A stretch of DNA of 64,000 nt from Tsukamurella pulmonis (GTDB taxonomy: Bacteria > Actinomycetota > Actinomycetes > Mycobacteriales > Mycobacteriaceae): assembly GCF_900103175.1 (NCBI RefSeq), contig NZ_FNLF01000002.1, forward strand, positions 1,054,001 to 1,118,000. Reading direction: 5' to 3'. Each line of letters starts with the position of its first letter. Position 1 is the stretch's first letter. This document shows positions 20,712-53,462 of this stretch, one piece after another. The translations under genes and the position numbers were made by a program. The notes below the pieces were generated by a model. That model was not told where the DNA came from, made no database searches, and was given only the letters and a program-made list of their open reading frames with translations.

Positions 20712-20758
20712 GCCCGAACGCGGGGGTGCGCCGCGCGATCGTGATTAAGGTGCACACC

Positions 20759-21459
20759 GTGAGTACCGCGACGCTGTTCATCTTCCCGCACGCCGGTGGG
20801 GCGCCCTCGTACTACGTGCCGTTCGCGCAGGAGTTCTCCTCGGACCTGCGGCGGATCGCGATCCCGTATCCGGGTCGCGGTGGGGCGCATGACGTCTCGA
20901 GTCTGGACGGCATCGAGTCGCTGGTGGATCGCCTGTGGCGCAAGCTCTCCCCGGACACCGTGGGGGACGGTCCGATCGCGTTCTTCGGCCACAGCATGGG
21001 CGCACTCGTCGCCTTCGAGACGGCGTGCCGGTTCGGCGCGCAGGGTCGTGCGGTGGACGCCCTGTTCGTCTCCGCGTGTGCTGCGCCGGGGCACAGTGGC
21101 TTCGACGACGTCGCGGATTCCGACGATGCGCTGCTCGCAGCGGCGGCTGCGATGACGGGGATCGATCCGCAGTTGCTCGCACACGAGGAGTTCGCCTCAC
21201 GAATCCTGCCGACGCTGCGGGGGTTCCAGGCGATCACCCGCTACCGGGCCCCGGCGGACGCGGTGCTGGATTGCCCGATCCAGGCCTACGTTGCAGCGGA
21301 TGATGCAATCGCGACCACGGATAATATGCGCCACTGGGCAGATCGGACTTCTCGGTCGTTCGATATGACGACGTTCGGCGCGGTCACCACTTCTACCTGG
21401 ACGAGCATGCCGCGGAGTTGGCGGCGGCGATCGAGGGGCGGCTCCGGGCGGCCCTCTGA
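20759..21459 (+). pseudogene. tesA: Type II thioesterase (TesA-like), 3' frameshift before the catalytic His
   Basis: A GTG at 20759 starts a thioesterase II domain: F-I-F-P-H-A-G-G near 6-13, R-I-A-I-P-Y-P-G-R-G near 30-39 and the nucleophile G-H-S-M-G with Ser79. At about codon 208 (21380) the frame breaks. The expected G-G-H-H-F-Y-L-D-E-H end, with the catalytic His, is present in the -1 frame and terminates at 21459. One G missing from a GGCGGCGGT-like run explains it. Read uncorrected, the protein continues with an Arg-rich tail to 21508. TesA releases or edits polyketide chains in the M. tuberculosis PDIM locus, where it is likewise upstream of fadD26. This is either a sequence error or a real lesion. 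Confidence 0.8.
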
Positions 21460-21543
21460 CCCGCAACGTCACGCGGTGTTAGCCGCGCGCTGGTTCAGTT
21501 GCACCTGAGCATCTTTGACGCCCCGTGTGACGTGAGCGCATTC

Positions 21544-21577
21544 CTCGGGCGACACTCAGCGATCGAGTGAACCCGAG
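21544..21577 (+). terminator. Nested hairpin downstream of tesA
   Basis: CTCGGG/CCCGAG enclose a second stem CACTC/GAGTG. No T-run follows. The position, 85 bp after the thioesterase stop and before the fadD26 promoter region, suits a GC-rich terminator or attenuator. Confidence 0.4.
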
Positions 21578-21612
21578 ACGGGGCGAATCGATCCGTGCCA
21601 TACTTCGCGCAG

Positions 21613-21655
21613 TTGCAAAAGGCTGTGAACTGACGTACTTGTTGTGGGGCGTCAG
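21613..21655 (+). promoter_or_regulatory. Candidate promoter and operator of the fadD26-pps operon
   Basis: TTGCAA (21613-21618), 17 bp, TACTTG (21636-21641) is the best sigma-70-like match in the gap before fadD26. An inverted repeat CTGACG/CGTCAG (21630-21635 and 21650-21655) flanks the -10 and start region and could bind a repressor. The leader would be about 65 nt. This would drive roughly 31 kb of overlapping genes. Confidence 0.4.
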
Positions 21656-21712
21656 TCCGAGGGGACATCGGTAGGTCGTCCCCGTGTCGTCGGCACGGAA
21701 GGTGTGAAGCAA

Positions 21713-23478
21713 GTGTCAGCAGATTCCCGGTCGGAAGAGTTGATTCCCGTTGCACTGGAGCGGCGGTCGAGGACCCAGGCGGACGAGCCGGCGTTCACCT
21801 TCGTCGACTACGACGTCGATCCGGACGGCTTCTTCGAGACCCTGACCTGGTCGGAGCTCTACCAGCGCGTGCAGGTCGTCGCGGCCGAGCTGTTGCGTCA
21901 CGGCGTCGCGGGCGATCGCGTCGCCATCCTCGCGCCGCAGTCGATGGACTACATCGTCGGCTTCCTCGGCGCACTGGAAGCAGGCTTCATCGCCGTCCCG
22001 CTGTCGGTGCCGCTGTTCGGCGCCCACGACGAGCGCGCGTCGAAGGTGTTGGAGAACTGCGAGCCGGTGGCGGTCTTCACCACCACCACGGCGATCGACG
22101 CGGTACTGCCGTCGGTGAACGCGGTAGCGGGCCGGGCGATCACGGTGATCGAGCTCGATGCGCTCGACTACGACAGCCCCGCCGGCGCGTACCGCACCGA
22201 GCACTCGGGCGCGCGCCCGGCACTGCTGCAGTACACGTCGGGCTCGACCGGCACGCCCTCCGGTGTCATGGTCACCCACCGGAACGTGGCGCTCAACATC
22301 GACCAGATCGTGGTCGATCAGTTCGCCGACCTCGGCGGACAGCCCACCGAGGAGACGACGCTCGTCTCCTGGCTGCCGTTCTTCCACGACCTCGGACTCA
22401 TGCTCGGGATCATGGCGCCGGTCGGTACCGGCCGGCATGCCGTGGTCACGAGCCCGGTGTCCTTCCTGCAGAAGCCCTCCCGGTGGATCCGCCTGCTGGC
22501 GATGTACTCGGGTGCGCACTCCGCGGCCCCCAACTTCGCGTTCGACCTGGCTGCGCGGCGCACTCGCGACGAGGATCTCGAAGGCCTCTCCCTCGAACGG
22601 GTGCACGGGATCATGAACGCCGCCGAGCGGGTCCAGCCCGCCACCGTGCGGCGCTTCAACGAGCGGTTCGCGCAGTTCGGGCTGCGGGAGGGGGTGCAGT
22701 TGCCCGCCTACGGCCTCGCCGAGGCCACGCTGTACGTCTCGTCGCTCGAGCCCGGGCGCGAACTGCCCATCGTGGCCTTCGATCTCGAGAAGCTCGCCGC
22801 GGGGTACGCGCTGCGGGTCGAGGCGGCGGTGGACGGCGACGACGCCTCCGTCCAGGTGGGCCTCGGCTCGCCGCGCAGCACCGTGTTCCGTGTCGTCGAC
22901 CCCGAGACCTGCATCGAGAGCCCTGAGGGCCGGGTCGGTGAGATCTGGGCGCACGGCGAGAACATCGCCGCGGGCTACTGGCGCGATCCGGTGCGCACCG
23001 AGAAGGTCTTCCACGGACGCCTCACCGAACCCTCCGAGGGCACACCGGAGGGGCCGTGGATGCGCACGGGCGACCTCGGCGTGATGTTCGAGGGAGATCT
23101 GTTCATCGTCGGGCGGATCAAGGACCTCATCATCATCGACGGGCGCAACCACTACCCGGACGACATCGAGGCCACCGTGAGCGCACACACGGGTGCGCGC
23201 ACCGCCGCCCTCGCCATCGCGGGCGAGGGCACCGAGGGACTGGTCGTCGTCGCCGAGTTGCGCCGCCTGCCCGCCGATCCCGCCGAGGTCGCGGACCTGG
23301 TGCGCGATGTGCGCAGCCGGGTCACCACCGCCATCGCGCAGAAGCACGCGCTGCGCGTGGTCGATGTCGCGCTGGTCCCGCAGGGGGCGATCCCGATCAC
23401 CACGAGTGGCAAGACCCGTCGCCAGGAGACCGCCAACCTGTACCGCTCGGGCTCGCTGCAGAGGCTCGGCGAGGCGCA

Positions 23479-23482
<4 letters not shown>
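21713..23482 (+). CDS. fadD26: Long-chain fatty-acyl-AMP ligase (FAAL), FadD26-like
   Basis: The product is 589 residues from a GTG at 21713 with GGAAGG 10 bp upstream (GTG 21704 is possible). The adenylation core motif Y-T-S-G-S-T-G-T-P lies at 174-182, the middle region has Y-G-L-A-E-A-T-L and R-T-G-D-L-G, and the C-terminal subdomain ends T-T-S-G-K-T-R-R-Q-E with Lys567. Length and the FAAL-type sequence context separate it from acyl-CoA ligases. FAALs activate fatty acids as acyl-adenylates and load them on the N-terminal carrier domain of a partner polyketide synthase. It overlaps the PpsA-like gene by 4 bp (ATGA), exactly as expected for that pair. Confidence 0.95.
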
Positions 23483-33656
<10,174 letters not shown>

Positions 33657-33658
33657 TC

Positions 33659-39015
<5,357 letters not shown>

Positions 39016-39019
<4 letters not shown>

Positions 39020-42000
39020 CCGAAACGGACCGGACACCGTCGACGGCGGGCACCGCCGCCCGCGGATCGACCTACGCGCGGGTGCGGGCGATGAGCGAGT
39101 CGCAGCGCGACGCACTCACCGACCAGTTCGCCAAGGCCGCGCGGATCACGGCGGCCGAGCCGATCGCCGTCGTGGGCATCGGATGCCGCTTCCCGGGCGG
39201 GGCCAACGCGCCGCAGCAGTACTGGGACCTGCTCATGCGCGGCCAGGACGCGGTCGTCGAGGTGCCGCCGGACCGCTGGGACGCCGACGCCTACTACGAC
39301 CCCGATCCCGCGGTGCCCGGCCGCATGCCGTCCAAGTGGGGCGGCTTCCTCGGCGGGATCGCCGGATTCGACGCCGATCACTTCGGGATCGCACCCCGCG
39401 AGGCCGAGACCATGGACCCGCAGCAGCGGATCCTGCTCGAGGTCGCCTGGGAGGCACTCGAACACGCCGGCATCTCGGCGCAGAGCGCCGAGGGCGTGCG
39501 CGCCGCGGTGATGATGGGCGTGTACTACAACGAGTACCAGTCGACCTCCGCCGCGGACCCCGAGAAGATCGACGCCTACTCCGCGACCGGCAACGCGCAC
39601 AGCGTGACCGTCGGCCGGATCGCCTACCTGCTGGGCCTGCGCGGCCCCGCGATCGCCGTCGACACCGCCTGCTCGTCGTCCCTGGTCTCGGTGCACCTGG
39701 CCTGCCAGAGCCTGCGCTCGCGCGAGAGCGACCTCGCGCTGGCGGGCGGGGTGAGCCTGATCCTGCGGCCGGAGACCCAACTCGCCCTGGGCAAGTGGGG
39801 CATGCTCTCCCCGCTCGGCCGGTGCCACTCCTTCGACGCCGCGGCCGACGGCTTCGTGCGCGGAGAGGGGTGCGGCGTGGTCGTGCTCAAGCGCCTGACC
39901 GACGCGGTGCGCGACGGCGACCGCGTGCTCGCCGTGGTCCGCGGCTCGGCCACCAATCAGGACGGCCGCAGCAACGGCCTCACGGCCCCCAACGCCCCCG
40001 CCCAGCGCGAGGTGATCACCCGCGCACTCGGCGAGGTGCCCGCCTCCTCCGTCCATTTCGTGGAGACCCACGGCACCGGCACCGCCCTGGGCGATCCGAT
40101 CGAGTTCGACGCCCTCGCGCAGGTGTACGGGGCGGGCGAGAGCCGGTGCGCGCTCGGCGCGGTGAAGACCAACATGGGCCACCTCGAGGCCGCCGCCGGG
40201 ATCGCCGGCTTCATCAAGTCCGTGCTCGCGGTCCACCGCGGGCAGGTCCCGCCCAACCTGCACTTCACCCGGTGGAACCCGGCGATCGACGCCGCCTCCA
40301 CCCGCCTGTACGTGCCCACCGAGGCCGATCCGTGGCCCGCGGCGGGCGGCCCCCGCCGCGCCGCGGTCTCGTCCTTCGGCCTGGGCGGCACGAACGCGCA
40401 CGTCGTGCTCGAGCAGGGGCCCGATCCCGAACCCGCCGCCCCGGCGGGTGCCGACCCGGCGGTTCTCCGCATCGGCGCCGGCTCGGCCGAGGCGGTGGCC
40501 GCGCGCGCCGCCGACCTGGCGGCCTGGCTCGCCGGGAAGGGCGCCGCCGCCGCGCTCACCGACGTGGCGCACACCGTCGCGCGGCAGGGCGCGGGCGCCG
40601 CCGTCGTCGGTGCCGTCACCGCGCGCGATACCGCCGCCACCGTCGAGGGGCTGCGGGCCCTCGCCGCGGGCGCCTCCCGCCCCGGCGTCACCGCCGCCGC
40701 GCCGCGACCCCGGCCCGGCGTCGTCTTCGCCTTCTCGGGGCAGGGCTCCCAGTGGCCCGGCATGGGACGCAGGCTGCTCGCCGAGGAGCCCGCGTTCGCC
40801 GCCGCCGTCGACCGGATCGAACCGGAGTTCGTCGCGCAGGTCGGGTTCTCGCTGCGCGAGACGCTGCGATCGGGCGAGCCGGTCGAGGGCATCGACCGGA
40901 TCCAGCCGGTGCTGGTGGGCGTGCAGCTCGCGCTCGCCGAGCTGTGGCGCGCCCACGGCGTGACCCCGGACGCCGTCATCGGGCACTCGATGGGCGAGGT
41001 GACCGCGGTCGTCGTGGCCGGCGGGCTCACCGTCGCCGAGGGGCTGCGGGTGATCGCGACCCGGTCCGCGCTGATGCGGCGCGAGCTGTCCGGGCAGGGC
41101 GCGATGGCGCTGCTGGAGATGGACGTCGCGAGCGTCGAGGAGCTGCTCACCTCGCACGAGGGCGTCTCCGTCGCGGTCGTCGCCTCGCCGCGGCAGACCG
41201 TCGTGGCTGGCTCGACGCGGGCCGTCGACGCCGTGGTCGCCGCGGTCTCCGCCCGGAACCTGCTCGCCCGCCGCGTCGAGGTGGACGTGGCCTCGCACCA
41301 CGCGACCGTCGATCCGATCCTGCCCGAACTGCGCACGGCCCTCGCGGGACTGCGGCCCGTACCGCCGACGATCCCGGTGCTCTCGACCGTGCGGCCCGGT
41401 GAGCAGGCGCCGGTCTTCGACGCCGACTACTGGGCGGACAACCTGCGCCGGCCGGTCTCCTTCGCGCCCGTCGCGGCCGATGCGGCCGCCCGCTTCGGCA
41501 CCCTCATCGAGGTCAGCCCGCACCCCGTCCTGACCCACGCGCTCGCCGACAACGTGCCGGCCGGTCGCGACGTCGCGGTGCTGCCGACGCTGCTGCGCGA
41601 CGAGGACGAGAGCATCGTCTTCCACGCCCACCGGGCCCGCCTCGGCGGCGAGCCGCCGGCCGGCCGGATCATCGACGTGCCCCCGCACAGCTGGCGGCAC
41701 CAGCAGTACTGGACGAGTGCGTCGCCCGGCCGCCGCACGGGCACCGGTGGCGCGCACCCGCTGCTCGGCGACCGCGTCGACCTGCCCTCGGGGACGGGGG
41801 TGCTCTGGCACGGCGACACCGGGCTCGACGCGCTGCCGTGGCTCGCGGACCACCGTGTGCAGGGCCAGCCGATCATGCCCGCCGCGGGCTTCGCCGAGAT
41901 CGCGCTCGCCGCGGGCCGCGCCGCGCTCGGCGCGGAGGCGGTGGCGGTGACCCGGCTCGAGGTCGAGCAGATGCTGCCGCTGACCGAGTCGGTCCCGCTC

Positions 42001-44391
42001 ACCACGCAGCTCACCCACGAGCCCGACGGCACGGCCCTGGTGGAGGTCTTCCACCGCACGGCCGCGGGGGAGTGGGTCCGCCACGCCCGCGCCCACGTCG
42101 GCGCCCTCCCGGCCGGGGAGGCCGCCACGCCCGTCGGTGCGCCGGCCGACGGTGCCCCCGTTTCGCCCCGCGCGGTGTACGCGGCGCTGCGCCGCGCCGG
42201 CGCGCACCACGATCGGGCCTTCGCTGCGCTCGAACGCGTGCTGCGCGATCCGGCGGGCGCCGCCGAGGCGGACGTCGTCCTGCCGTCCGAGGCCACGGCG
42301 CACCCGGCGCTGCTGCTGCACCCGGTGGCGCTGGACGCGGCGCTGCAGACGCTCGCCGCCGCCCTGCCGGACGAGGCCGCCGACGGCGACGCCGCCTACC
42401 TGCCCGTCGCCGTCGAGGCCGTCCGGCTCCACCGCCCGGTCGGACGGCGTGCGCTCTGCCGCGCCCGGATCACGACCGTCGGGGACGAGGGCGTGAGCGG
42501 CGACGTCACGGTCCTGGACTCCACGGGCACCGTCGCCGTCGAGGTGCGGGGCGTGTTCCTGCGGCGCATCCACCGCCGCTCCGTTCCGTTGCCGTTGGAA
42601 CGCAAGCTCTTCGGACACCGGTGGGAGACGGTCCCGACTCCCGCGCCGGCGGACGCGACGGATCCGGAGGGCTGGCTGGTGCTCGCGGACGACCACGGTG
42701 CCGCAGGCGCTGCCGCCGACGCGCTCGCCGCCCCGCACCGCAGGATCGTCACCGCCGGATTGGACGAGCGCGGCCTCGCCGATGCGGTCGCCCGGTTCGC
42801 CGAGGATCCCGCGCACGCCCCGGCCGGCGTGGTGCTGCTCGTGGACGGCGCACCGTCGTCGACCGGCGGCGCGGAGGCCGCCGAGGCAGTGATCTGGCGG
42901 GCGGCCTCGGTCGTGCGCGCCGTGACCAGCGGCTGGCACGGCCGCTCGCCCCGGCTGTGGCTGATCACCCGCGACGGCCTCGCCGTGCGCGACGGCGACG
43001 TCCCCGACCCCGCGGCGGGCGCCCTGACCGGTCTCGTCCGCGTGCTCGCGTACGAGCACCCCGACCTGCGGGCCACGGTGCTCGACCTGCCGGCCGGTGC
43101 CGACCTCGCTGACGCGCTGGCGCGCGAGAGCGCCGCCCCGGACGCCGACGACCTCGTCGCCTGGCGCGACGGGGAGCGGTACGTGCAGCGGCTCGTGCGC
43201 CGCGACAGCGCACCGGCCGAGGCCCCCGCCGTGCGCGGCGACGGCGCGTACCTCGTCACCGGCGGCCTCGGCGGCATCGGCCTCGTGATCGCCCGCCGCC
43301 TCGTGGCGGCAGGCGCGGGCCGGGTGGTGCTCAGCGGACGCGGCGAGCCGTCCCCGGAGGCGGACGCGGCGCTCGACGAGTTGCGCGCCGGTGCCGACGT
43401 GCAGTACGTGCGCGGCGATGTCGCCGAGCCGGGCGTCGCCGAGCGGCTCGTGGCCGTCGCGGAGGAGACCGGCCTCGCGCTGCGCGGGGTGATCCACTCC
43501 GCGGCCGTGCTCGACGACGAGCTCGTCGCCGCGATGTCGCGCGACGCGCTGGGCCGGGTGTGGCGGCCCAAGGCGATCGGCGCCGACCGCCTGGACGCGG
43601 CGACCGCGGAGCACGATCTCGACTGGTGGGTGCTGTTCTCCTCGGTGGCCTCGCTGCTGGGCTCGCCCGGACAGGGCGCGTACGCCGCGGCGAACGCCTA
43701 CCTCGACGCGCTCGCCGAGCGGCGCCGCGCCGGCGGCCGCACCGCGACCGCGATCTGCTGGGGGCAGTGGTCCGAGGTGGGGCTCGCCCGCTCACTGGAG
43801 ATGGGGGTGCTGGACCCGATCTCACCCGCCGAGGGCACCGAGGCGCTCGATGCGATCCTCGGGGGCGGCCACACCCGCGTCGGCGTCGCCCGGCTGCGGC
43901 TCGACCGCGCCGCGTCGGCGTTCCCCGAACTGGCCGGGTTGGGCTACTTCACCCATCTGCTGGCCGAGCTCGAACCCGAGGAAGACGCCGGCGCGATCGA
44001 CCTGGCGGCACTGACGGCACTGCCCTTCGCCGCCGCCGTCACCGTCGTGCTCGATCGCCTGCGCCAGCGGATCGGCGCGGTCCTGGGCTACTCCGGCGGT
44101 GCCGGGATCGCCGCCGACCGTCCCCTCACCGAGCTCGGACTGGATTCGCTGATGGCGGTGCGCATCCGCAACGCCGCTCGCGGCGAGTTCGGGATCGAAC
44201 CGCCCGTCGCCCTGCTGCTGCAGGGCGCCGACCTGACCGCCCTGGCCGTGGACCTGGTCCGCAGGCTCGGCATCGACGACGACACGGACGAGACCGCCGC
44301 GGCGCCCGGTGGGCTCCGCGATCGAGCGCAGCAGCGCGCCGCCGCACGCCGGCGCGGCGCCGCACGACGGAAGGCAGGCAACACCGCATGA
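39016..44391 (+). CDS. ppsD: Type I polyketide synthase, PpsD-like (KS-AT-DH-KR-ACP)
   Basis: The product is 1791 residues. An N-terminal docking helix (R-A-M-S-E-S-Q-R-D-A-L-T) is followed by KS (Cys219, His352) and AT (Ser658, V-A-S-H ending at His761, the methylmalonyl-like class). DH is canonical: A-D-H-R-V-Q-G-Q-P-I-M-P with His946, and D-A-A-L-Q with Asp1107 and Gln1111. KR is classical (G-G-L-G-G-I-G at 1416, L-D-D motif, Ser1543, Tyr1556), and ACP Ser1711. The Arg/Ala-rich end R-D-R-A-Q-Q-R-A-A-A-R matches the PpsD C-terminus. No ER is present; in M. tuberculosis PpsD depends on the trans-acting reductase Rv2953, which is not found in this window. It overlaps both neighbours by 4 bp. 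Confidence 0.95.
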
Positions 44392-47300
44392 TCGGGACCC
44401 GGACCCGCGACGACATCGGCGAGGACGCACCCGAGGACGGCGAGCTGATCGCCGTCGTGGGCATGGCCGGGCGCTTCCCCGGCGCGCGGACCCTCGCGGA
44501 GTACTGGCGCAACCTGCGCGACGGCGTCGAATCGATCGTCCCGATCGACGAGGACGAGCTGCGCCGCAGCGGGATCGGCGCCGACGCCCTCGACGACCGC
44601 GGCTACATCCGGTCCGGGGCACCGCTCGACGGCATCGACGAGTTCGACGCCGCGCTGTTCGGATTCACGCCCGCCGTCGCCGAGGGGCTCGATCCGCAGC
44701 ACCGCCTGTTCCTGCAGAGCGTCTGGCACGCCATCGAGGACGCGGGCTACCGCCCCGGCGAGCTGGACGGCGCCGTCGGCGTGTACGGGACCAGTTCCGC
44801 CAGCGGCTATCTGCTCAACAACCTGATGTCGCGCCTGGACGTCGAACGCACCATCGGGCAGGGCGCCAGCTACGAGATGATCGACCTGTCGCTGCGCAAC
44901 GACAAGGACCACATCGCGACCCGGATCGCGCACCAGTTCGACCTGCACGGGCCCGCGCTCTCGGTGCAGACCGCGTGCTCGTCCTCGGCCGTCGCCGTCC
45001 ACCTGGCCTGCCAGGCCCTGCTCTCCGGCGAGGTCGACGCCGCGCTCGCGGGCGGCTCGTCGATCCGGGTGCCCAACCGTGCGGGGTACTGGCACACCCA
45101 CGGCGCGATGACCTCGCCGAGTGGGCACTGCCGGCCCTTCGACGCCCGCGCCGACGGCACCGTCTTCGGCAGCGGGGTCGGCGTGGTGATGCTCAAGACC
45201 CTGGAGCGGGCCCGCGCCGACGGCGATCGCGTGCACGCCGTGATCCGCGGCTCCGCGATCAACAACGACGGCGCGGCCAAGATGACCTATGCGGCCCCCA
45301 CCGCCGCCGGGCAGGCCGCCGCCATCGCCGAGGCGCACGCCGTGGCGGGCGTGGACCCTGCCGACATCAGCTACGTCGAGACGCACGGCACCGGAACGCC
45401 GCTCGGTGATCCCATCGAGATCGAGGGCCTGCGGCAGGCCTTCGATCTCGGCGAGCGCGAGCGCACCCGCGCCTGCCGCCTGGGATCGGTGAAGGCGAAC
45501 ATCGGGCACCTCGAGGTCGCCTCCGGCATCGCCGGGGTGCTCAAGGTGATCCTCGCGCTCAAGCACCGGGCGGTGCCCGGCACGGTGCACTACACGGCAC
45601 CCAATCCCGAGCTGCGCCTCGGCGACGGGCCCTTCGAGATCAACCAGGACCTCGTCGAGTGGGAGAGCGACGGCCCGCGCCTGGCCGGCGTGAGTTCCTT
45701 CGGCGTCGGCGGCACCAACGTCCACCTGATCCTCGAGGAGGCGCCGGCCCCCGCGACCCCCGCCCCCGCACCCGGCCCGTACCCGCTGCTGCTCTCCGCC
45801 CGCGGCACCGAGCGGATCGACGTCGCGCGCGCCCGGCTCGCCGACGAGTGGGAGGCCGACCCCGCGCTGGAGCCGGCCGATGTGGCCGCCACCCTCGCCG
45901 CCCGGCCCGCCGACACCACCCGCGCGGTGACCGTGGTGCGCGATCGCGCCCACGCGATCGCCGCTCTGCGCGCCGGCGAGGGCGCCGTCGGCTCCGTGCC
46001 CGAGGGCGTCCGCGACGACGCCGACCGGATTGCGCTGCTCTTCCCCGGGCAGGGCACCCAGTACGTGGGGATGGCGCGCGGGCTCTACGACGCCGAGCCC
46101 GTCTTCGCCCAGAACGTGGACCGGTGCGCCGCCGGTTTCGACGCGGCCCTCGGCATCGACCTCAAGGCGCTGCTGTTCGGCGGTCGCAGCCGCGAGCTCG
46201 AACGCACCGACCGCTCCCAGCCCGCCCTGTTCACCGTCGAGTACGCGCTGGCGCGCCTGCTCGAAGCGCGTGGCGTGGTCCCGTCGATCCTGGTGGGGCA
46301 CAGCATCGGCGAGTACGTGGCGGCGACGCTCGCCGGTGTCTTCGATCTGCCCACCGCCCTGACCGTGGTCGCCGAGCGCGGCCGGGTCATGCAGGCCGCG
46401 CCGCGCGGCGTGATGCTCGCGGTACCGCTCGGCGAGAAGGAGATCGCGCCCTACCTGGGCTCCGAGATCGACGTCGCGACCGTCAACGAGCCGGGCGGCT
46501 GCGTCGTCGCCGGCACCGAGGACGCGATCGCCGACCTGACCGCCAAGCTCGCGGCCGACACGATCACCGCGCGCCGGGTACGGACCTCGCACGCCTTCCA
46601 CTCCCGGCTGATGGAGCCGGCCGCCGCGCAGTTCGCCGAGTTCCTGGCCGGCGTCGAGCTGCGTGAGCCGCGGATCCCGATGGCCTCCAACGTGACCGGG
46701 ACGCTGATGAGCGCCGCCGAGGCGACCGACCCGGCCACCTGGTCCCGCCAGATGCGGGCCACCGTCCGGTTCGCGGACGAGCTCGACACCGTCCTCGCCG
46801 AACCGCACAGGGTGCTCGTCGAGGTCGGCCCCGGCGGGACGCTCACGTCGGCGGCCAAGCGGCACCCCGGGTTCGGCGACGGTCACCGCATCGCGCGGCT
46901 CGTGCGGCATCCGGCGCAGGACCGCGACGACCGGGAGTTCTTCCTGGAGGGACTCGGAACGCTCTGGGCCGCCGGATTGGACGTCGACCCGGGCGTACCG
47001 CAGGGCCGCGAGGTGCTGCTGCCCGGCTATCCGTTCCTCCCGGAACGGCACTGGGTCGAGGCGGCGCCGCACCGGCGGTCCGCGCCCGGCCCGGACGCCG
47101 CACCGTCCGGCGACGCGACGGCCGCGGGCGACGACGGTGCCGACACCGGTACCGAGGCCGTGCTGGGCCGCGTGTGGGCCGCGTGCCTGGGCACCGATAC
47201 CGTCGACCCGGAGGCGGACTTCTTCGACCTCGGCGGTGACTCGCTGGTGGCGATCGGCGTCTCCATGGCCGCCGGCCACGCCGGGATCGATCTCACCCCG

Positions 47301-48764
47301 CAGGACCTGTACGACCACCCGACCGTCGCGGCGCTGGCGCGGGCCATCACCGAGCGCGACGCCGCGGGCGGCCTCGCCGAGCCCACGGCACCGTCGCAGC
47401 GCCCGCCGCTCACGCCGAACCTCGCCCGGCTCACCGAATCCGGGGTGCGCGATCACGCGCGCTGGCGGATCCCGCTGGTGCTGGGCGTGGGACCGGAGGT
47501 GACGGCCGAGGACGTGACTGCGGTGCTCGAGGCCCTGATCGCGCGGCACGACGCCCTGCGGCTGCGGCTGCGGCGCGACGACGGGCTGTGGGAGCAGGTG
47601 ATCGCCGAGGCGGGCGAGGCCCCGACCCATCTGCGCGTGCACGAGGAGCATACGGCGGCGACGGATCTCGACGCCGTCGCGCAGGAGCGCCTGGCCGCCC
47701 TGATCGCCGAGGCCGACGACGACGCCGCACCCGTGCAGGCCCTGCTGCTGCGGCCCGAGCCGGGGGGCGCCGGCCGCCTCGCGCTCGCCGTGCCCGGTTG
47801 GGTGGGTGACGCCCGATCGCGGGAGATCCTGGCTGCGGACCTGCTCACCGCGTTCGGCCAGCGGGCCGCGGGAATGCAGGTCTTCCTGGCGCCCACGGCC
47901 ACCGGATGGGCCGAGTGGTCCCAGCGGCTCGCGGGCCTCGCGGGCCACCCGGCCGTGCTCGAATCCCGCTCGCGCTGGCTCGATGCCGCGCTGCCGGCGG
48001 TGCGGATCGCGACCTCCGACCCCGAGGACCGGCCCGCCGCCGCGGACTATCGCCGCCTGCCCACCACGGTGGGCACCGTGGAGGCCGCCGAGATCGACGA
48101 CGCCCGGCGCCGCACCGGGGTCCGGCTCGAGGAACTGGTCACCGCCGCGATCGTGCGCGGGGTGGCCTCGGCGGTCGGCCCCGGCCGCGTCGCGATCGAC
48201 CTCGACGGCGACGCCCGGTCCGTGCTCAAGCCGGCCGTCGACGCGCGGGACACGGTGGGCTGGTTCACCACGGTCCACCCGGTCGCGCTGACCGCACCCG
48301 ACGGCGACGACGAGCTCGTCGAGCAGGTGCGCACCGCCCTGCGCGGCGTACCGCACCACGGCGTCGGCCACGGCCTGCTGCGCTACCTGCACGCGCCCAC
48401 CGCGGCGCACCTGGCCGCGGCTCCCGCGGCGGACCTGCACCTCGTGGTCGGCGGCACGGTCCCGGACCCGCCGGACATCGCGCAGGGCGCCAAGGCGGTG
48501 TGGTTCGCCGCCGACGCGGCGATGCCGGTGCGCGACGTCGTGCCCGGGCTGGGGCACCCCGTCGAGCTGCGGGTCTACCGCACCGGAGGGCGCCTCCACC
48601 TGGACTGGTGGTTCGACGCGCGCCGCGTGGACGCCGCGCGGATCGACGCGCTGGCCGCGGCCGTCACGCAGGCGCTCGGGGCGCTGGCGCGGACGAGTGC
48701 CGAGCCGGAGGACGAGGACGCCGACGACTGGGAGCTGGTCGACCTGTCCGGAGGGGATGCGTGA
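44388..48764 (+). CDS. ppsE: Type I polyketide synthase, PpsE-like (KS-AT-ACP-condensation-like)
   Basis: The product is 1458 residues, close to the size of PpsE. KS has Cys197 (Q-T-A-C-S-S-S) and His333. AT has Ser639 (G-H-S-I-G-E) and H-A-F-H (735-738), unlike the VASH ATs upstream. ACP Ser952 (G-G-D-S-L). Residues about 990-1440 form a condensation/acyltransferase-like domain in which the HHxxxDG site is degenerate (P-G-W-V-G-D-A), so it is probably not catalytic in the normal way. There is no KR, DH or thioesterase, so the last unit stays a beta-keto thioester and release must involve another factor, such as TesA. The stop overlaps drrA (TGATG). Confidence 0.95.
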   Translation: MIGTRTRDDIGEDAPEDGELIAVVGMAGRFPGARTLAEYWRNLRDGVESIVPIDEDELRRSGIGADALDDRGYIRSGAPLDGIDEFDAALFGFTPAVAEGLDPQHRLFLQSVWHAIEDAGYRPGELDGAVGVYGTSSASGYLLNNLMSRLDVERTIGQGASYEMIDLSLRNDKDHIATRIAHQFDLHGPALSVQTACSSSAVAVHLACQALLSGEVDAALAGGSSIRVPNRAGYWHTHGAMTSPSGHCRPFDARADGTVFGSGVGVVMLKTLERARADGDRVHAVIRGSAINNDGAAKMTYAAPTAAGQAAAIAEAHAVAGVDPADISYVETHGTGTPLGDPIEIEGLRQAFDLGERERTRACRLGSVKANIGHLEVASGIAGVLKVILALKHRAVPGTVHYTAPNPELRLGDGPFEINQDLVEWESDGPRLAGVSSFGVGGTNVHLILEEAPAPATPAPAPGPYPLLLSARGTERIDVARARLADEWEADPALEPADVAATLAARPADTTRAVTVVRDRAHAIAALRAGEGAVGSVPEGVRDDADRIALLFPGQGTQYVGMARGLYDAEPVFAQNVDRCAAGFDAALGIDLKALLFGGRSRELERTDRSQPALFTVEYALARLLEARGVVPSILVGHSIGEYVAATLAGVFDLPTALTVVAERGRVMQAAPRGVMLAVPLGEKEIAPYLGSEIDVATVNEPGGCVVAGTEDAIADLTAKLAADTITARRVRTSHAFHSRLMEPAAAQFAEFLAGVELREPRIPMASNVTGTLMSAAEATDPATWSRQMRATVRFADELDTVLAEPHRVLVEVGPGGTLTSAAKRHPGFGDGHRIARLVRHPAQDRDDREFFLEGLGTLWAAGLDVDPGVPQGREVLLPGYPFLPERHWVEAAPHRRSAPGPDAAPSGDATAAGDDGADTGTEAVLGRVWAACLGTDTVDPEADFFDLGGDSLVAIGVSMAAGHAGIDLTPQDLYDHPTVAALARAITERDAAGGLAEPTAPSQRPPLTPNLARLTESGVRDHARWRIPLVLGVGPEVTAEDVTAVLEALIARHDALRLRLRRDDGLWEQVIAEAGEAPTHLRVHEEHTAATDLDAVAQERLAALIAEADDDAAPVQALLLRPEPGGAGRLALAVPGWVGDARSREILAADLLTAFGQRAAGMQVFLAPTATGWAEWSQRLAGLAGHPAVLESRSRWLDAALPAVRIATSDPEDRPAAADYRRLPTTVGTVEAAEIDDARRRTGVRLEELVTAAIVRGVASAVGPGRVAIDLDGDARSVLKPAVDARDTVGWFTTVHPVALTAPDGDDELVEQVRTALRGVPHHGVGHGLLRYLHAPTAAHLAAAPAADLHLVVGGTVPDPPDIAQGAKAVWFAADAAMPVRDVVPGLGHPVELRVYRTGGRLHLDWWFDARRVDAARIDALAAAVTQALGALARTSAEPEDEDADDWELVDLSGGDA

Positions 48765-49738
48765 TGCGGCACTCCGGACCCGCCGTGGTGGTGGAGGGCC
48801 TGACCAAACGGTTCGGCGACTTCACCGCGCTGCGCGGCATCGACCTGTCCGTGCGCCGCGGCGAGATCCTCGGCCTGCTCGGGCCCAACGGTGCGGGCAA
48901 GACCACCACGGTGGACATCCTCGCCACCCTGTCGCGGCCCACGAGCGGCGTCGCCCGGGTCGCGGGCTGCGACGTGGCGCTCGACCCCGCGGGGGTGCGG
49001 CGCGCGATCATGCTGACCGGGCAGAACGCCGCGCTCGACGACCTGCTGACCGGCCGCGAGAACCTGGTGCTGTTCGGCCGGCTGCAGGGGCTGCGCAAAT
49101 CCGAGGCCCGCAGCCGGGCCAAGGAACTGCTCGACCGGTTCGACCTCGATTACGCGGCCGACCGGCGGGTGGGCACCTACTCGGGCGGCATGCGCCGGCG
49201 CATCGACATCGCGTGCGGCCTGGTGATCCGTCCCGAAGTGGTCTTCCTCGACGAGCCGACCACCGGCCTCGATCCTCGCAGCCGGCAGGGCGTGTGGGAG
49301 CTGGTGGCCAAGCTGCGCGACGACGGGATCGCCACGCTGCTCACCACCCAGTACCTCGAGGAGGCCGACGCGCTGAGCGACCGGATCACCGTGATCGACC
49401 GCGGCACCGTCATCGCCGAGGGCACCGCGGACCAGCTCAAGGAGCGGACCGGGGCCACCATCTGCGAGATCGTGCCCCGGCATCGCAGCGACCTGCCGGC
49501 GATCCTCGCCGCGCTGGGCCCGCTGGCCGGCCGTGAGCCCGTCGCCGACGGTGCCGACCGGGTCGCGATCCCGGCACCCGACGGGACCGGGACCCTGGTG
49601 GCGGCGGTCTCCCGGATCGACCCGACCGGGATCGAGCTGCTGGACGTGGCGCTGCGGCGCCCCTCCCTCGACGAGGTCTTCTTCGCCCTCACGGGCGGTC
49701 CGGCGGCCCCCCGCGTGGCCGAGGACGTGACGCTGTGA
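48764..49738 (+). CDS. drrA: ABC transporter ATP-binding protein, DrrA-like
   Basis: The product is 324 residues from ATG 48764 (GGAGGGG 7 bp upstream; GTG 48761 is an alternative). Walker A G-P-N-G-A-G-K-T lies at 40-47, the signature is Y-S-G-G-M-R-R-R-I-D-I-A, Walker B is V-V-F-L-D-E-P, and the DrrA-type sequence T-G-L-D-P-R-S-R-Q-G follows. A roughly 90-residue C-terminal DrrA-family extension is present. It energises export of the lipid with DrrB and DrrC in the inner membrane. It overlaps ppsE and drrB. Confidence 0.94.
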   Translation: MRHSGPAVVVEGLTKRFGDFTALRGIDLSVRRGEILGLLGPNGAGKTTTVDILATLSRPTSGVARVAGCDVALDPAGVRRAIMLTGQNAALDDLLTGRENLVLFGRLQGLRKSEARSRAKELLDRFDLDYAADRRVGTYSGGMRRRIDIACGLVIRPEVVFLDEPTTGLDPRSRQGVWELVAKLRDDGIATLLTTQYLEEADALSDRITVIDRGTVIAEGTADQLKERTGATICEIVPRHRSDLPAILAALGPLAGREPVADGADRVAIPAPDGTGTLVAAVSRIDPTGIELLDVALRRPSLDEVFFALTGGPAAPRVAEDVTL

Positions 49739-50538
49739 GCTCTCGTCCCGACACCTCGCGGGCGCAGCAGTGGTGGGTGCTGACGGTCCGGGCCGTGGCG
49801 CCGAGCCTGCGCAACGGCGAGCTCGTCACCCAGGTGGCCGCCTCGGTCATGTTCACCGTCGGCTTCTACATCCCGCTCAAGCAGTTCATGGGCGCCTACG
49901 CGGCGACGATGAGCAGCTACGCCCAGTACCTGACCCCGCTGATCGTGCTGCAGGCGATCTCGTTCGCCGCCATCTCGGGCGGCTTCCGGGCGGCGACCGA
50001 CGCGGTGGAGGGCATCGACCGGCGCTTCCGCTCCATGCCCATCGGCCGGCTGACCCCGATGGCGGCGCGCATGTCCGGCAGCATGTACCGGTGCGGGCTG
50101 GCGCTGGTGATCTCGCTGGTGTGCGGCCACGTGATCGGCTTCCGCTTCTACGGCGGGCCGCTGCACACCGCGGGCTTCGTGGCCCTGGTGCTCCTGCTCG
50201 GCCTGACGCTGTCCGTGCTCGGGGACCTGGTGGGCACCGCGACCCGCAACCCCGATGCCACCACGCACCTGATGATGCTGCCGCAGCTGACCCTGGGCCT
50301 GCTGTCGGTCGGTGTGCAGCCCGTCGAGCGGTTCCCCGAGTGGATCCAGGGCTTCGTCCGCGATCAGCCCATCTCGCAGTTCGTCTTCGGGTTGCGCGCG
50401 CTCGCCGGGGACTCGATCCCCGGTGCCGCGGGGGAGCCGTCCTGGGCCGTGGTCGGCCCGGCCGTCTACTGGGCCCTCGGCCTGCTCGCGGTGCTCCTAC
50501 CGCTGCACGCTCTCGTCGCGGCGCGGAGGAACCGCTGA
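49735..50538 (+). CDS. drrB: ABC-2 type permease, DrrB-like
   Basis: The product is 267 residues from a GTG overlapping the drrA stop (GTGA). Six transmembrane helices are predicted. The segment R-A-A-T-D-A-V-E-G-I-D-R-R-F-R-S-M-P before the second helix pair and L-V-G-T-A-T-R-N-P-D-A-T match the Drr permease family. E-R-F-P-E-W-I and F-V-R-D-Q-P-I-S-Q-F sit in the large external loop. It is one half of the DrrABC exporter. Its stop overlaps the drrC start (TGATG). Confidence 0.93.
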   Translation: MSSRPDTSRAQQWWVLTVRAVAPSLRNGELVTQVAASVMFTVGFYIPLKQFMGAYAATMSSYAQYLTPLIVLQAISFAAISGGFRAATDAVEGIDRRFRSMPIGRLTPMAARMSGSMYRCGLALVISLVCGHVIGFRFYGGPLHTAGFVALVLLLGLTLSVLGDLVGTATRNPDATTHLMMLPQLTLGLLSVGVQPVERFPEWIQGFVRDQPISQFVFGLRALAGDSIPGAAGEPSWAVVGPAVYWALGLLAVLLPLHALVAARRNR

Positions 50539-51398
50539 TGTGCGCGCACCGGTTGGAGGAGCGCCGGGCACCCGGCCTGCGGACCCACGGTCAGCGGGCC
50601 GTGCGGCCGGTCCGGTCGAGTGAGCGCTCACCGCGCGACCTGCTCGTGCAGACCGGGGTGCTGGCCGGGCGGATCGTGCGCCGCTGGGTCCGCGACCCGG
50701 CCACCCTGGCGGAGACGGTGCTCGTCCCGGTCGCCTTCCTCGTCACGCTCAACATCGTGCTCGGGGACGGCATCTCGAAGCTCACCGGCGTCAACGCCCT
50801 CGCCGGCAGCGTGCCGCTGGTGGCGCTGGTCGCCGCCACGCAGGGTGCCACCGTCGGCGGGCTCGGGGTGATGGCGGAGCGGGACAACGGATTCCTCGCC
50901 CGCCTGTGGGGCACGCCGATCCATCGCGGCGCGGGCATCACGTCCCGGCTGCTGGCCGAGGCGCTGCGGATCGTGACCGCCACGGCCGTGCTGACGATCA
51001 CCGGTGTGCTGCTCGGGCTGCGCTTCGAGAACGGCGCGCTCTCGGTACTCGGGTGGCTGCTGGTGCCGGTGCTGTTCGGCGTCGCCTTCGCCGCCGCGGT
51101 GCTGACCGTGGCGGTCTACGCCGCGAAGACCATCGTCGTGGAGGCCACGGCCCTGATCTCGGGGCTGTTCATGTTCTTCTGCACGGGGTTCGTCCCGCTG
51201 GAGCAGTACCCGGACTGGTTGCAGCCCGTGGTGCAGCACCAACCCTTCAGCAACACCGTCGACACCATGCGGGGCCTGGCCGTGGGCGGCCCCGTGGCCG
51301 CGCCGCTGATGGAGCTGCTGGCGTGGACCGTCGGCATCCTCGCGGTCTGCGCCGTGCCGTTGACCGTCGGCTACCGCCGGGCGAGTACCCGGGACTGA
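50538..51398 (+). CDS. drrC: ABC-2 type permease, DrrC-like
   Basis: The product is 286 residues. A 45-residue basic cytoplasmic N-terminus is followed by six transmembrane helices; G-V-M-A-E-R-D-N-G-F-L-A-R-L-W near 113-127 and E-Q-Y-P-D-W-L-Q-P-V-V-Q-H-Q-P-F in the external loop are Drr-family hallmarks. It pairs with DrrB and DrrA for export of the polyketide lipid. It starts on the drrB stop codon and is followed 16 bp later by papA5. Confidence 0.93.
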   Translation: MCAHRLEERRAPGLRTHGQRAVRPVRSSERSPRDLLVQTGVLAGRIVRRWVRDPATLAETVLVPVAFLVTLNIVLGDGISKLTGVNALAGSVPLVALVAATQGATVGGLGVMAERDNGFLARLWGTPIHRGAGITSRLLAEALRIVTATAVLTITGVLLGLRFENGALSVLGWLLVPVLFGVAFAAAVLTVAVYAAKTIVVEATALISGLFMFFCTGFVPLEQYPDWLQPVVQHQPFSNTVDTMRGLAVGGPVAAPLMELLAWTVGILAVCAVPLTVGYRRASTRD

Positions 51399-51414
51399 CC
51401 GAGATCGGAGAGAG

Positions 51415-52656
51415 ATGTTCGAATCCGCTGTGCTGCGCCCGTTGGCGGAGAGCGAGAAGATGTTCGCCGAGACGCACAACTTCGTCGGGCTCGGCGCGCA
51501 CGTGCGCGGGCCGGTCGACGTCGAGTTGCTGAGCGAGGCCTTCGAGACGCTGCTCGAAGTGCACCCCGTGCTGGCCGCGCGCCTCGAGCCCGACGAGCGC
51601 GACGGATTCCGCATCGTCGCCGACGACTTCCTGCCCCAGGGGGTGGTGCTGGCCTCCGATCCCGCTGCCGCACAGCCCTTCGACCAGCGGCAGTCCCTGG
51701 TGCGGCTGGTGCTCGATCCGGGCGAGGAGGAGACCGCGGCCACCCTCTACGTGCACCACGCCCTCGCCGACGGGCACCACCAGTTCGCGCTCATCGAGGA
51801 GCTGTTCGGCATCTACACCGACCTGGCGACAACGGGGACCGTGCGCGTGGGTCCCGTGCAGCCGACGCCCGCCGCGCTGGAGACGGTGCTCGCGGACCGC
51901 GCGGTGGTCAAGCAGCGCCGCTCGGGGCTCGAACGCTTCATGCCCGCGATGTACGCCTACGACCTGCCGCCCTCGCGCCGGTCGGTGACCGCCGAGCGCC
52001 CGGACGTCCCGGTCCTGGTTCCGATGGTGCAGCACACCTTCACCGCCGAGGACACGCGCGCATTGTTCGACCTCTCCCGGGCGGAGCGCGTCAGCGTCAA
52101 CGGCATCGTCTCGGCCGCCGTCCTGCTCGCCGAGTGGCGGTTGCGCGGCGCGACGGCCGTGCCGGTGCCCTACATCTACCCCGTCGATCTGCGTTACGTG
52201 CTCTCGCCGACGGTGTCGGCCACCGCGTGCACCAATCCGGTGGGGGTCGCGACCTACCTCGCCGAGATCGGTTCCGGCACCCGGATACTGGACCTGGCGC
52301 GCGAGATCGCGGAGACCTTCCGCGCCGACCTGGCCGAGGGCGTGATCCAGCAGTCGCTGCTGCACTTCCGGCCCGCGTACGTGGGGAACCCGCCGGGACT
52401 GCCCGACGTGGTGATGGTGACCGACAACGGCGTGGTGCCTCCGGTGCGGACTCCTCCCGGCGTCGAGATCAGTGCCGTGCACGGCGAGCTGTACTTCCAG
52501 GTGGGGTCCGGCATCGAGATGTACACCAGCAAGGTCTTCGACGGCCGGCTGCAGCTCGAGTACCACACGCACGGGCCCGATCCGGAGGACGCGCTCGCTG
52601 CCGTCGCGGCGCAGCTGAGCGCGCTCGCCGCTCAGTCCGTGGGACCGAAGGCGTAG
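51415..52656 (+). CDS. papA5: Polyketide-associated acyltransferase, PapA5-like
   Basis: The product is 413 residues, as expected for PapA5. The catalytic motif is H-H-A-L-A-D-G-H-H with His114, His115 and Asp119. Other matching features are the N-terminal S-E-K-M-F-A-E, L-L-E-V-H-P-V-L-A-A-R-L near 45-56, E-R-F-M-P-A-M-Y-A-Y near 178-187 and P-V-D-L-R-Y-V-L near 256-263. PapA5 esterifies the two hydroxyls of phthiocerol with mycocerosyl groups taken from Mas. Mas is not encoded here, so the acyl donor must be made elsewhere or differ. GGAGAGAG precedes the ATG. It is convergent with the methyltransferase gene, overlapping it by 25 bp. Confidence 0.95.
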   Translation: MFESAVLRPLAESEKMFAETHNFVGLGAHVRGPVDVELLSEAFETLLEVHPVLAARLEPDERDGFRIVADDFLPQGVVLASDPAAAQPFDQRQSLVRLVLDPGEEETAATLYVHHALADGHHQFALIEELFGIYTDLATTGTVRVGPVQPTPAALETVLADRAVVKQRRSGLERFMPAMYAYDLPPSRRSVTAERPDVPVLVPMVQHTFTAEDTRALFDLSRAERVSVNGIVSAAVLLAEWRLRGATAVPVPYIYPVDLRYVLSPTVSATACTNPVGVATYLAEIGSGTRILDLAREIAETFRADLAEGVIQQSLLHFRPAYVGNPPGLPDVVMVTDNGVVPPVRTPPGVEISAVHGELYFQVGSGIEMYTSKVFDGRLQLEYHTHGPDPEDALAAVAAQLSALAAQSVGPKA

Positions 52657-53462
52657 CGGTGGTACTGCAGGGCGCGCCGCACCGGCCGCACCACCCGCCC
52701 GATGCCGCCGACCGCGGCGAACAGGCGCGAGCTGCCCTGGAAGGTCTCGGCGTCGAAGAAGGTGACGTCGCGCACCGGGCGCAGGCCGGGCACCGCCGCG
52801 GCGACCTCGGCGGGATCGTCGACGCCCCAGTGCAGGACGGACCCGGTGGTGCGGTTGAGTTTGTGCATCCGCTGGCTGCGGATCGCGAGACGGCTGTAGA
52901 AGTCGATCTGGACCTCGCCCTCGGGGAAGCGCTGCAGGACGGCGCGCAGCAACTGCGTGCCCTCCGTCGCCGTGAGGTACATGCTGATCCCCTCCGCGAG
53001 GAACAGTGCGGGCCGATCCGCCGGGATGCGCTGCAGCCATTCGTGATCGGTGGCCGAGCTGGCGAGCAGGTGGTAGCCGTCGCGCTCCGGGTAGACCTGC
53101 CGGCGCAGGTCGATCACCGCGGGGAAGTCGACGTCGACCCAGTGCACCGCGGGCCCGGGATCGACGCGGAAGACCCGGCTGTCGAGACCGCAACCCAGGT
53201 GCACGACGGTCGATTCCGGGTATCGCCGCAGGAACTCCCGGGTCCAGCGGTCGTACTGGGCGGTGCGCACCGTCGCCAGCGGCGACCAGCGCGCCGACAC
53301 GCCGAGCGAGGACCAGTCGTAGTCGATGCCGGCCACGGCGTCGCGGGCGAAGGTGTCGCCGAGGACGGGGCGATCGGAATCCGCGTCCAACGCTTTGAGA
53401 TACAGCGTGGTGAGCATCGTCTGCGCGGCGCCGCTGAGGTCGACGGTGGCCTTGGGGGGCAT
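52632..53462 (-). CDS. SAM-dependent O-methyltransferase, LCM/PPM1 (COG3315) family
   Basis: The product is 276 residues from ATG 53462, chosen because a promoter places transcription on that codon; ATG 53480 is the alternative. The start V-D-L-S-G-A-A-Q-T-M-L-T-T-L-Y is typical of the family. Motif I is V-V-H-L-G-C-G-L-D-S-R near 84-94, then V-H-W-V-D-V-D-F-P with the SAM-ribose Asp, and F-L-A-E-G-I-S-M-Y near 155-163. COG3315 includes O-methyltransferases of polyketide pathways. Its position, tail-to-tail with papA5, suggests it may methylate the polyketide as Rv2952 does in mycobacteria, although Rv2952 belongs to another family. Confidence 0.85.
   Translation of the reverse strand: MPPKATVDLSGAAQTMLTTLYLKALDADSDRPVLGDTFARDAVAGIDYDWSSLGVSARWSPLATVRTAQYDRWTREFLRRYPESTVVHLGCGLDSRVFRVDPGPAVHWVDVDFPAVIDLRRQVYPERDGYHLLASSATDHEWLQRIPADRPALFLAEGISMYLTATEGTQLLRAVLQRFPEGEVQIDFYSRLAIRSQRMHKLNRTTGSVLHWGVDDPAEVAAAVPGLRPVRDVTFFDAETFQGSSRLFAAVGGIGRVVRPVRRALQYHRYAFGPTD

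What the first reader, a model, noticed from the sequence alone, without database searches (positions are those of the whole stretch)
20759..52656. PDIM-type locus (tesA-fadD26-ppsABCDE-drrABC-papA5) in what looks like a non-Mycobacterium genome
Eleven consecutive genes have the order, orientation and domain content of the M. tuberculosis phthiocerol dimycocerosate locus. Terminal tails specific to PpsA, PpsB, PpsD and PpsE are recognisable, and almost every junction is ATGA, GTGA or TGATG, so this is one translationally coupled unit of about 31 kb. PDIM is a virulence lipid of slow-growing pathogenic mycobacteria. High GC and the neighbouring genes argue that this host is another genus, which would make the locus an ancestral or laterally shared phthiocerol-like system. 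Whether it has been described before I cannot tell.
Basis: partly seen in the sequence, partly recalled or inferred. Interest (0 to 1): 0.95.

Follow-up and report, generated by a model that had tools for sequence, protein, structure and literature searches.

The report
PDIM-like lipid assembly island in Tsukamurella
A Tsukamurella bacterium, a distant relative of the tuberculosis bacillus, carries a 39-kb gene island that resembles the machinery for the tuberculosis surface lipid PDIM but is wired differently, so it probably makes a different surface lipid.

Summary
In detail: tesA-fadD26-ppsABCDE-drrABC-papA5 is present, in PDIM-locus order, in a Tsukamurella genome, and KS trees tie the PpsC and PpsD slots to those of PDIM-type loci. 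But it is not an ordinary PDIM locus. (1) The ATs of PpsA-D all read VASH, as in MAS; solved PpsA and PpsC ATs read VAPH. (2) The PpsC slot is KS-AT-KR-DH*-ACP (PpsB-type KR, then a DH/product-template-like domain) instead of DH-ER-KR. (3) No Mas-like PKS was found in the genome; papA5 is followed by a methyltransferase, a flavodoxin-like protein, a nitroreductase, an unknown protein, an SDR and an FMO. The unit is an island of about 39 kb (20,712-59,829), not 32 kb; three non-carrier Tsukamurella have 53, 120 and 256 bp there. Eleven loci share this assembly line: 5 Tsukamurella, 3 Gordonia, 3 in unnamed genus g2 (taken as Mycobacterium). Their PapA5 clade is separate from the PDIM-type clade (99/99). 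Most likely product: a methyl-branched, partly unsaturated, acylated polyol lipid exported by DrrABC. In this strain tesA departs from its relatives' frame near its 3' end. New variant of a known kind; all chemistry is inferred.

The parts
20712..59829 (.). island: the whole unit, between a DAO-family gene (19794-20711, +) and a short conserved ORF whose ATG is at about 59845
   Evidence: flanks lie 53, 120 and 256 bp apart in non-carriers G313, G401, G400, about 1.9 kb in G191
20759..21508 (+). tesA-like type II thioesterase; reading frame departs from relatives after about residue 206
   Evidence: PF00975 E 4e-38; frame check
21713..23482 (+). fadD26-like fatty acyl-AMP ligase (start codon not certain)
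   Evidence: PF00501; NF004509 fatty-acid--AMP ligase 780 bits, over cut-off
23479..28914 (+). ppsA: ACP-KS-AT(VASH)-DH*-KR-ACP; its DH* has lost the G of HxxxGxxxxP
28911..33656 (+). ppsB: ACP-KS-AT(VASH)-KR-ACP
33659..39019 (+). ppsC slot: KS-AT(VASH)-KR-DH*-ACP
37646..38677 (+). post-KR DH/product-template-like domain (DH*) of the ppsC slot, with its flanks; H...G....P and D...H kept
   Evidence: profile A1 to PDB 7vwk E 2.5e-27; motif in 11 of 11 loci
39016..44391 (+). ppsD: KS-AT(VASH)-DH-KR-ACP
44388..48764 (+). ppsE: KS-AT(HAFH)-ACP-condensation-like domain
48764..49738 (+). drrA, ABC transporter ATPase
   Evidence: TIGR01188 367 bits, over cut-off
49735..50538 (+). drrB, ABC-2 permease
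   Evidence: TIGR00025 160 bits, over cut-off
50538..51398 (+). drrC, ABC-2 permease
   Evidence: TIGR00025 162 bits, over cut-off; TIGR01248 149 bits, under its cut-off of 166
51415..52656 (+). papA5-like acyltransferase with HHALADG motif
   Evidence: PF16911 E 1e-55; PDB 1q9j 362 bits; four NCBIfam PapA5 models match, all under their cut-offs, best 550 of 716 bits; motif
52632..53480 (-). LCM-family SAM methyltransferase
   Evidence: PF04072 E 6e-14; conserved beside papA5 in the sister clade
53569..54228 (+). flavodoxin/WrbA-like protein (weak match; start not certain)
   Evidence: best PDB 4ici E 0.0016; conserved
54570..55433 (+). nitroreductase-family flavoprotein
   Evidence: PF00881 E 2e-22; in the same 6 of 16 Tsukamurella genomes as papA5
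55452..57434 (+). protein without Pfam (E up to 1) or NCBIfam (E up to 1e-10) match; alanine-rich N-terminal stretch suggests export (my reading of the sequence); first about 390 aa conserved
57442..58233 (-). short-chain dehydrogenase/reductase
   Evidence: PF00106 E 2e-38; conserved in 4 Tsukamurella and 2 Gordonia stretches
58215..59777 (+). FMO/Baeyer-Villiger-like flavin monooxygenase
   Evidence: PF00743/PF13738; 77-82% in four Tsukamurella, 62-64% in two Gordonia

Best explanation
The island encodes assembly, finishing and export of a surface lipid that shares ancestry with PDIM but is a different molecule. Inferred steps: the FadD26-like ligase loads a fatty acid on the first ACP of PpsA; PpsA-D each add a methylmalonyl unit; PpsA and PpsB leave hydroxyls; the PpsC slot leaves a hydroxyl or, if its post-KR DH* is active, a double bond; PpsD leaves a double bond; PpsE adds a malonyl unit and the chain is released as a ketone. 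The flavoenzymes, SDR and methyltransferase then modify the chain, PapA5 esterifies hydroxyls with acyl groups that are not mycocerosates, and DrrABC exports it. Shown here: gene content, domain order, motifs, phylogeny, island boundaries. Not shown: any enzyme activity or any product.
For: Gene order and families. KS of the PpsC and PpsD slots group with those of PDIM-type loci. VASH in 44 of 44 PpsA-D ATs of 11 loci (alignment for those fetched by then); VASH in MAS chains 5bp1/7agp, VAPH in PpsC 7ahb and PpsA 7akc. PpsC slot KS-AT-KR-DH*-ACP in 11 of 11 loci of this type versus DH-ER-KR in 3 of 3 PDIM-type loci; the KR of this slot belongs with PpsB KRs, 100/100, in the 8 of 11 loci in that tree. 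DH* motif kept in 11 of 11. The seven strongest KS hits of the genome are the five Pps, Pks13 and one KS-AT-DH-KR-ACP PKS, none with an ER; in PDIM-type G281 a KS-AT-DH-ER-KR-ACP protein of 2137 aa and a FadD-like gene follow papA5. Downstream genes conserved beside papA5 in Tsukamurella and Gordonia. PapA5 clade 99/99.
Against: AT and DH predictions rest on motifs only. In PDIM-type G052, PpsA also has a DH* with intact residues, yet the PDIM pathway is known (recalled) to keep that hydroxyl, so an intact motif does not prove dehydration. PDIM-type G281 has VASH in PpsC and VAPH in PpsD, so the motif is not perfectly tied to position. tesA is off frame in this strain and T. conjunctivitidis ppsC has an in-frame stop near codon 58, so the pathway may be silent in these strains. 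The role of each downstream enzyme is a guess from its family.
Confidence: 0.75

Rival explanations
1. The locus makes true PDIM (phthiocerol dimycocerosates) in Tsukamurella.
For: Same gene order, PapA5 and DrrABC homologues, KS relatedness of the PpsC and PpsD slots.
Against: No Mas-like PKS among the genome's KS hits; PpsC slot without ER; VASH in PpsA-C; PapA5 in a separate clade and under all NCBIfam PapA5 cut-offs.
Confidence: 0.05
2. The locus is decaying and makes nothing in this strain: tesA is off frame.
For: The tesA frame departs from 5 of 5 relatives near its 3' end; an in-frame stop in ppsC of T. conjunctivitidis.
Against: The other ten core ORFs are open here; small assembly errors in GC-rich DNA are common (recalled); the post-KR DH* motif is kept in 11 of 11 loci.
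Confidence: 0.12
3. The cluster makes a diffusible, antibiotic-like polyketide rather than an envelope lipid.
For: The transporter fits daunorubicin-resistance-type families; flavin monooxygenase, nitroreductase and SDR are common tailoring enzymes (general knowledge).
Against: Fatty acyl-AMP ligase loading, PapA5 and close kinship to the PDIM line; the close PapA5 relatives found lie in Tsukamurella, Gordonia and g2/Mycobacterium-named genomes, apart from one contig titled Acidobacteriaceae that the genome search puts in the host genus.
Confidence: 0.08

Closest known systems
   Same: tesA-fadD26-ppsA..E-drrABC-papA5 order; KS of slots C and D group; PpsA with DH*; PpsE with terminal condensation-like domain
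   Different: VASH in place of VAPH in slots A-C; slot C KR-DH* in place of DH-ER-KR; no Mas-like gene beside papA5; extra methyltransferase, flavoproteins, SDR, FMO; PapA5 gives 362 bits to 1q9j against 606 for G281. Only G281 was compared with 1q9j; G187 shows four PKS ORFs only.
Loci in unnamed g2 genomes G210, G321, G183
   Same: same PKS architecture, VASH in A-D, PapA5 58%, LCM and flavodoxin-like neighbours
   Different: genes further downstream not examined
Loci of g2 genomes G273 and G226
   Same: VASH in A-D; LCM, flavodoxin-like, nitroreductase and, 16 kb or more downstream of the stretch start, FMO relatives
   Different: slot C is KS-AT-DH-KR-ACP; no drrABC between ppsE and papA5; ppsA lacks the first ACP
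AviM product-template domain (PDB 7vwk; PMC9135731, passages read)
   Same: best solved relative of the post-KR DH* (E 2.5e-27); His-Asp dyad
   Different: AviM PT is an aldol cyclase of an orsellinic acid synthase
Enediyne PksE KR-DH pair (PMC9967187, one passage read)
   Same: KR followed by DH
   Different: enediyne synthase; here one module of a lipid assembly line

Membership tests
PDIM biosynthesis locus | fadD26-ppsA-E-drrABC-papA5 order, tesA upstream | tested here: met
PDIM biosynthesis locus | module-by-module relatedness of the PKS | tested here: met
   KS_C and KS_D group with PDIM-type C and D; A and B slots are mixed: two PDIM-type PpsB KS group with D; PpsE KS not in the tree
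PDIM biosynthesis locus | malonyl-type ATs in PpsA-C, methylmalonyl-type in PpsD (specificities recalled) | tested here: not met
   VASH in all four
PDIM biosynthesis locus | PpsC with DH-ER-KR | tested here: not met
   KS-AT-KR-DH*-ACP
PDIM biosynthesis locus | mycocerosic acid synthase (KS-AT-DH-ER-KR-ACP) in the genome | tested here: not met
   seven strongest KS hits, none with ER; the weaker hits lie in frames of 395-871 aa and one of 3133 aa, not examined further; positive reference G281
PDIM biosynthesis locus | PapA5 of the PDIM clade | tested here: not met
   separate clade, 99/99; under the cut-offs of all four NCBIfam PapA5 models matched
PDIM biosynthesis locus | MmpL7 and LppX export partners | tested here: inconclusive
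   three LppX/LprAFG-family proteins in the genome, not resolved to LppX; MmpL7 not searched
PDIM biosynthesis locus | Rv2951c, Rv2952, Rv2953 and fadD28 counterparts | not tested
   no search made
PDIM biosynthesis locus | makes phthiocerol dimycocerosates | not testable with these tools
   needs lipid MS

The most novel reading that the evidence does not exclude
The post-KR DH* of the PpsC slot is a dehydrating cyclase. It forms an enoyl thioester and lets the hydroxyl made by PpsA add to it (the spacing is right for a six-membered ring), or it acts as an aldol cyclase like its nearest solved relative. The island would then make a ring-bearing, multiply methyl-branched relative of PDIM, and the PpsC slot would be a rebuilt module (PpsC KS-AT, PpsB-type KR, PpsA-like DH*).
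Probability: 0.12. Interest if true: 0.85.

Novelty: new variant of a known kind. Interest (0 to 1): 0.62.

Why it matters
PDIM is treated as a virulence lipid of slow-growing pathogenic mycobacteria. A 2018 paper notes PDIM genes in PDIM-negative Corynebacteriales and says it remains a question whether they make outer-leaflet molecules of common origin with PDIM (PMC6194230, passages read). This locus family, with one fixed PKS architecture in Tsukamurella, Gordonia and the genus taken to be Mycobacterium, makes that question testable outside the tuberculosis group and gives a comparison for how the PDIM line got its extender units and its PpsC reduction. It also gives a KR-DH order outside enediyne synthases and shows a hardly visible DH/PT-like domain in PpsA of PDIM-type loci.

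Tried and rejected
Rejected: (a) ordinary PDIM, see the membership test; (b) contig inside Mycobacterium, refuted by kinship and named relatives; (c) recent transfer from Mycobacterium: PapA5 is at most 58% identical to g2 genomes and 59%; (d) the single-sequence AlphaFold model of DH*: pLDDT 33, discarded; no fold search was run.

Literature: searches (3 papers hold both Tsukamurella and phthiocerol; listing only, not opened; 1 paper, listing only; 13 papers; passages read of three; 2,477 papers, 15 listed; 204 papers, 12 listed; 25 papers, 20 listed) showed no title or abstract start describing this locus in Tsukamurella or Gordonia. These searches cover an open library and capped lists, so it may be in print elsewhere. 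One search found four papers with the KR-DH strings; passages: one says KR-DH is specific to PksE, one lists KR-DH-ACP for a Streptomyces atroolivaceus PKS, one writes a ClbB module as KS-AT-KR-DH-ER-T, one uses the letters for DH-KR modules. So the order is rare, not unheard of.

Results against my reading or limits: G281 has VASH in PpsC and VAPH in PpsD, with ppsD in two pieces; PpsA DH* keeps its residues in PDIM-type G052; the split of post-KR from pre-KR DH* has only 77/77; in G187 four PKS ORFs and no fadD26 were found in the stretch taken. Absence of the LCM/flavodoxin-like pair was judged within about 1.5 kb of papA5 for loci L012-L032 and L038-L041, more for L051, L052 and G281. Rows dropped: L042-L046 (the same loci under other names) and matches under 280 aa in the PapA5 tree; 15 PpsE and one G281 piece had no KS motif match and are not in the KS tree; the KR tree lacks G210, G321, G183, fetched later. 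The sixth Tsukamurella carrier, G405 (7.8-kb contig), was not examined for PKS domains. G. polyisoprenivorans ppsB is cut by a contig end.
Full report
Observation. Frames and start codons confirm tesA, fadD26, ppsA-E, drrABC and papA5 at 20,759-52,656 on the + strand. Pfam and NCBIfam agree with the names: thioesterase, fatty-acid--AMP ligase, five type I PKS, DrrA/DrrB-family transporter parts and a PapA5-like protein; the PapA5 models of NCBIfam match under their cut-offs, best 550 of 716 bits. Eight of ten junctions overlap or lie within 2 bp.

Host. The window lies on the 4.72-Mb contig of a 4.78-Mb genome. The closest named relatives of PapA5 are Tsukamurella conjunctivitidis (81%), T. 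asaccharolytica, T. sp. TY48 and T. sp. 8F, then a contig titled Acidobacteriaceae, then Gordonia. I equate G398, G397, G407 and G404 with the four Tsukamurella from matching coordinates and contig lengths. The second contig has a Tsukamurella plasmid as best match in the plasmid collection. The species was not determined.

Distribution. A PapA5 orthologue (68-100% identity) is in 6 of 16 Tsukamurella genomes, the window's own included. Of 401 family genomes, 30 have a PapA5 at E<=1e-80, in 3 of 31 genera: 6 g1, 4 g5, 20 g2; of the 20 g2 matches 11 are at 57-59% and 9 at 45-52%. Of 397 genomes of the order, 29 match at the looser E<=1e-30, 12 of them at only 31-37%. In the PapA5 tree of 46 rows the 18 rows with the methyltransferase and flavodoxin-like genes near papA5 form one side of a branch (99/99), Tsukamurella and Gordonia group together (97/98), and the PDIM-type rows lie outside (neighbours). 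G281, used as PDIM-type reference, matches PapA5 1q9j with 606 bits; the window protein gives 362.

Island. In non-carriers G400, G313 and G401 the upstream flank (to about 20,692-20,705) and the downstream flank (from 59,830-59,845) are 256, 53 and 120 bp apart; in G191 about 1.9 kb; in G406 the right flank was not in the stretch. So the window carries about 39 kb there. T. conjunctivitidis has the locus in the same neighbourhood (fdhD upstream, same downstream flank), though the genes between fdhD and tesA do not match; in T. asaccharolytica, TY48 and 8F neither flank is alike in the stretches taken and fdhD lies elsewhere. The nitroreductase gene occurs in exactly the 6 genomes with papA5. 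The other downstream genes are conserved in the four other Tsukamurella loci examined and, as far as the contigs reach, in three Gordonia. Between Tsukamurella species the locus proteins are less conserved (PpsA-E 73-80% to T. conjunctivitidis) than Pks13 (95%) or FdhD (88%).

Extender units. ATs of PpsA-D read VASH and PpsE reads HAFH in all 11 loci with the window's architecture, 44 of 44 and 11 of 11 (printed alignments). In solved chains MAS reads VASH, PpsC and PpsA read VAPH. That MAS uses methylmalonyl and PpsA/PpsC malonyl is recalled. Of three PDIM-type loci, G052 and G187 have VAPH before slot D and VASH in D; G281 has VASH in C and VAPH in D.

The PpsC slot. Pfam finds KR then ACP with about 370 aa between, no ER, and weak PKS_DH_N/PS-DH matches after the KR; some relatives pass the curated cut-offs. 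A profile of eight such regions finds PDB 7vwk, the AviM product-template domain, at E 2.5e-27 and several PKS DH domains more weakly. The His and Asp motifs are kept in 11 of 11 post-KR copies. A related domain lies before the KR in PpsA in 15 of 15 loci where a PpsA was seen: the 11, G273, G226 and PDIM-type G281 and G052; there the G of HxxxGxxxxP is lost in 3 of 15 and the H/Q after the Asp in 7 of 15. The KR of the slot belongs with PpsB KRs (100/100, 8 loci) while its KS belongs with PpsC KS of PDIM-type loci: the slot is a mosaic. Which arrangement is older was not determined. PDIM-type loci have DH-ER-KR in this slot in 3 of 3; G273 and G226 have DH-KR.

Missing partner. The seven strongest KS hits of the own genome are the five in the island, Pks13 and one KS-AT-DH-KR-ACP PKS; none of their proteins shows an ER. 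Weaker KS hits lie in frames of 395-871 aa and one of 3133 aa and were not examined. So no Mas-like enzyme is seen. In G281 a KS-AT-DH-ER-KR-ACP protein of 2137 aa and a FadD-like gene follow papA5, which fits mas and fadD28 (names recalled).

Function. The most economical reading is a surface lipid: fatty acid loading, four propionate-type extensions, hydroxyls from PpsA and PpsB, hydroxyl or alkene from the PpsC slot, alkene from PpsD, ketone after PpsE, tailoring by the downstream redox enzymes and methyltransferase, acylation by PapA5, export by DrrABC. Each chemical step is inference from family and motif. TesA, whose reading frame is altered here, may limit output in this strain.

Known or new. 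The searches listed no paper on this locus in Tsukamurella or Gordonia; they cover an open library, and most lists were capped. PMC6194230 (passages) notes PDIM genes in PDIM-negative Corynebacteriales and leaves their product open; its main text does not mention Tsukamurella or Gordonia. I rate the locus a new variant of a known kind.

Noticed in passing
window 26395-27225; L088: PpsA, also in PDIM-type loci, holds a DH/product-template-like domain between AT and KR that Pfam barely sees; its residues are intact in PDIM-type G052.
   Followed up: partly
L089-L093: The DH* profile also finds weaker relatives in other large PKS frames: g2 genomes G034 and G116, G015 of the order, G542 and G595 of the class.
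   Followed up: no
L072-L073, L081-L084: Shorter loci tesA/fadD-ppsB-like-ppsE-drrABC-papA5 with only two PKS genes in M. xanthum, Mycobacterium sp. HKST-UBA43 and G337.
   Followed up: no
L062-L065: In G273 and G226 the KS of ppsA and ppsC are nearly identical, as if one had been copied onto the other.
   Followed up: no
L085 480-6023 (-): A further KS-AT-DH-KR-ACP PKS of the host genome, near an NAD-glutamate dehydrogenase gene; role unknown.
   Followed up: no
L046: A contig titled Acidobacteriaceae bacterium BOG_194 carries a Tsukamurella-type copy of this locus, and the genome search has the same match coordinates in G405 of the host genus: the title looks wrong.
   Followed up: no
L054 about 18904: T. 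conjunctivitidis ppsC has an in-frame stop near codon 58.
   Followed up: no
window 28343-28431: ARAGORN calls a tRNA-Val inside the coding sequence of ppsA; probably spurious.
   Followed up: no
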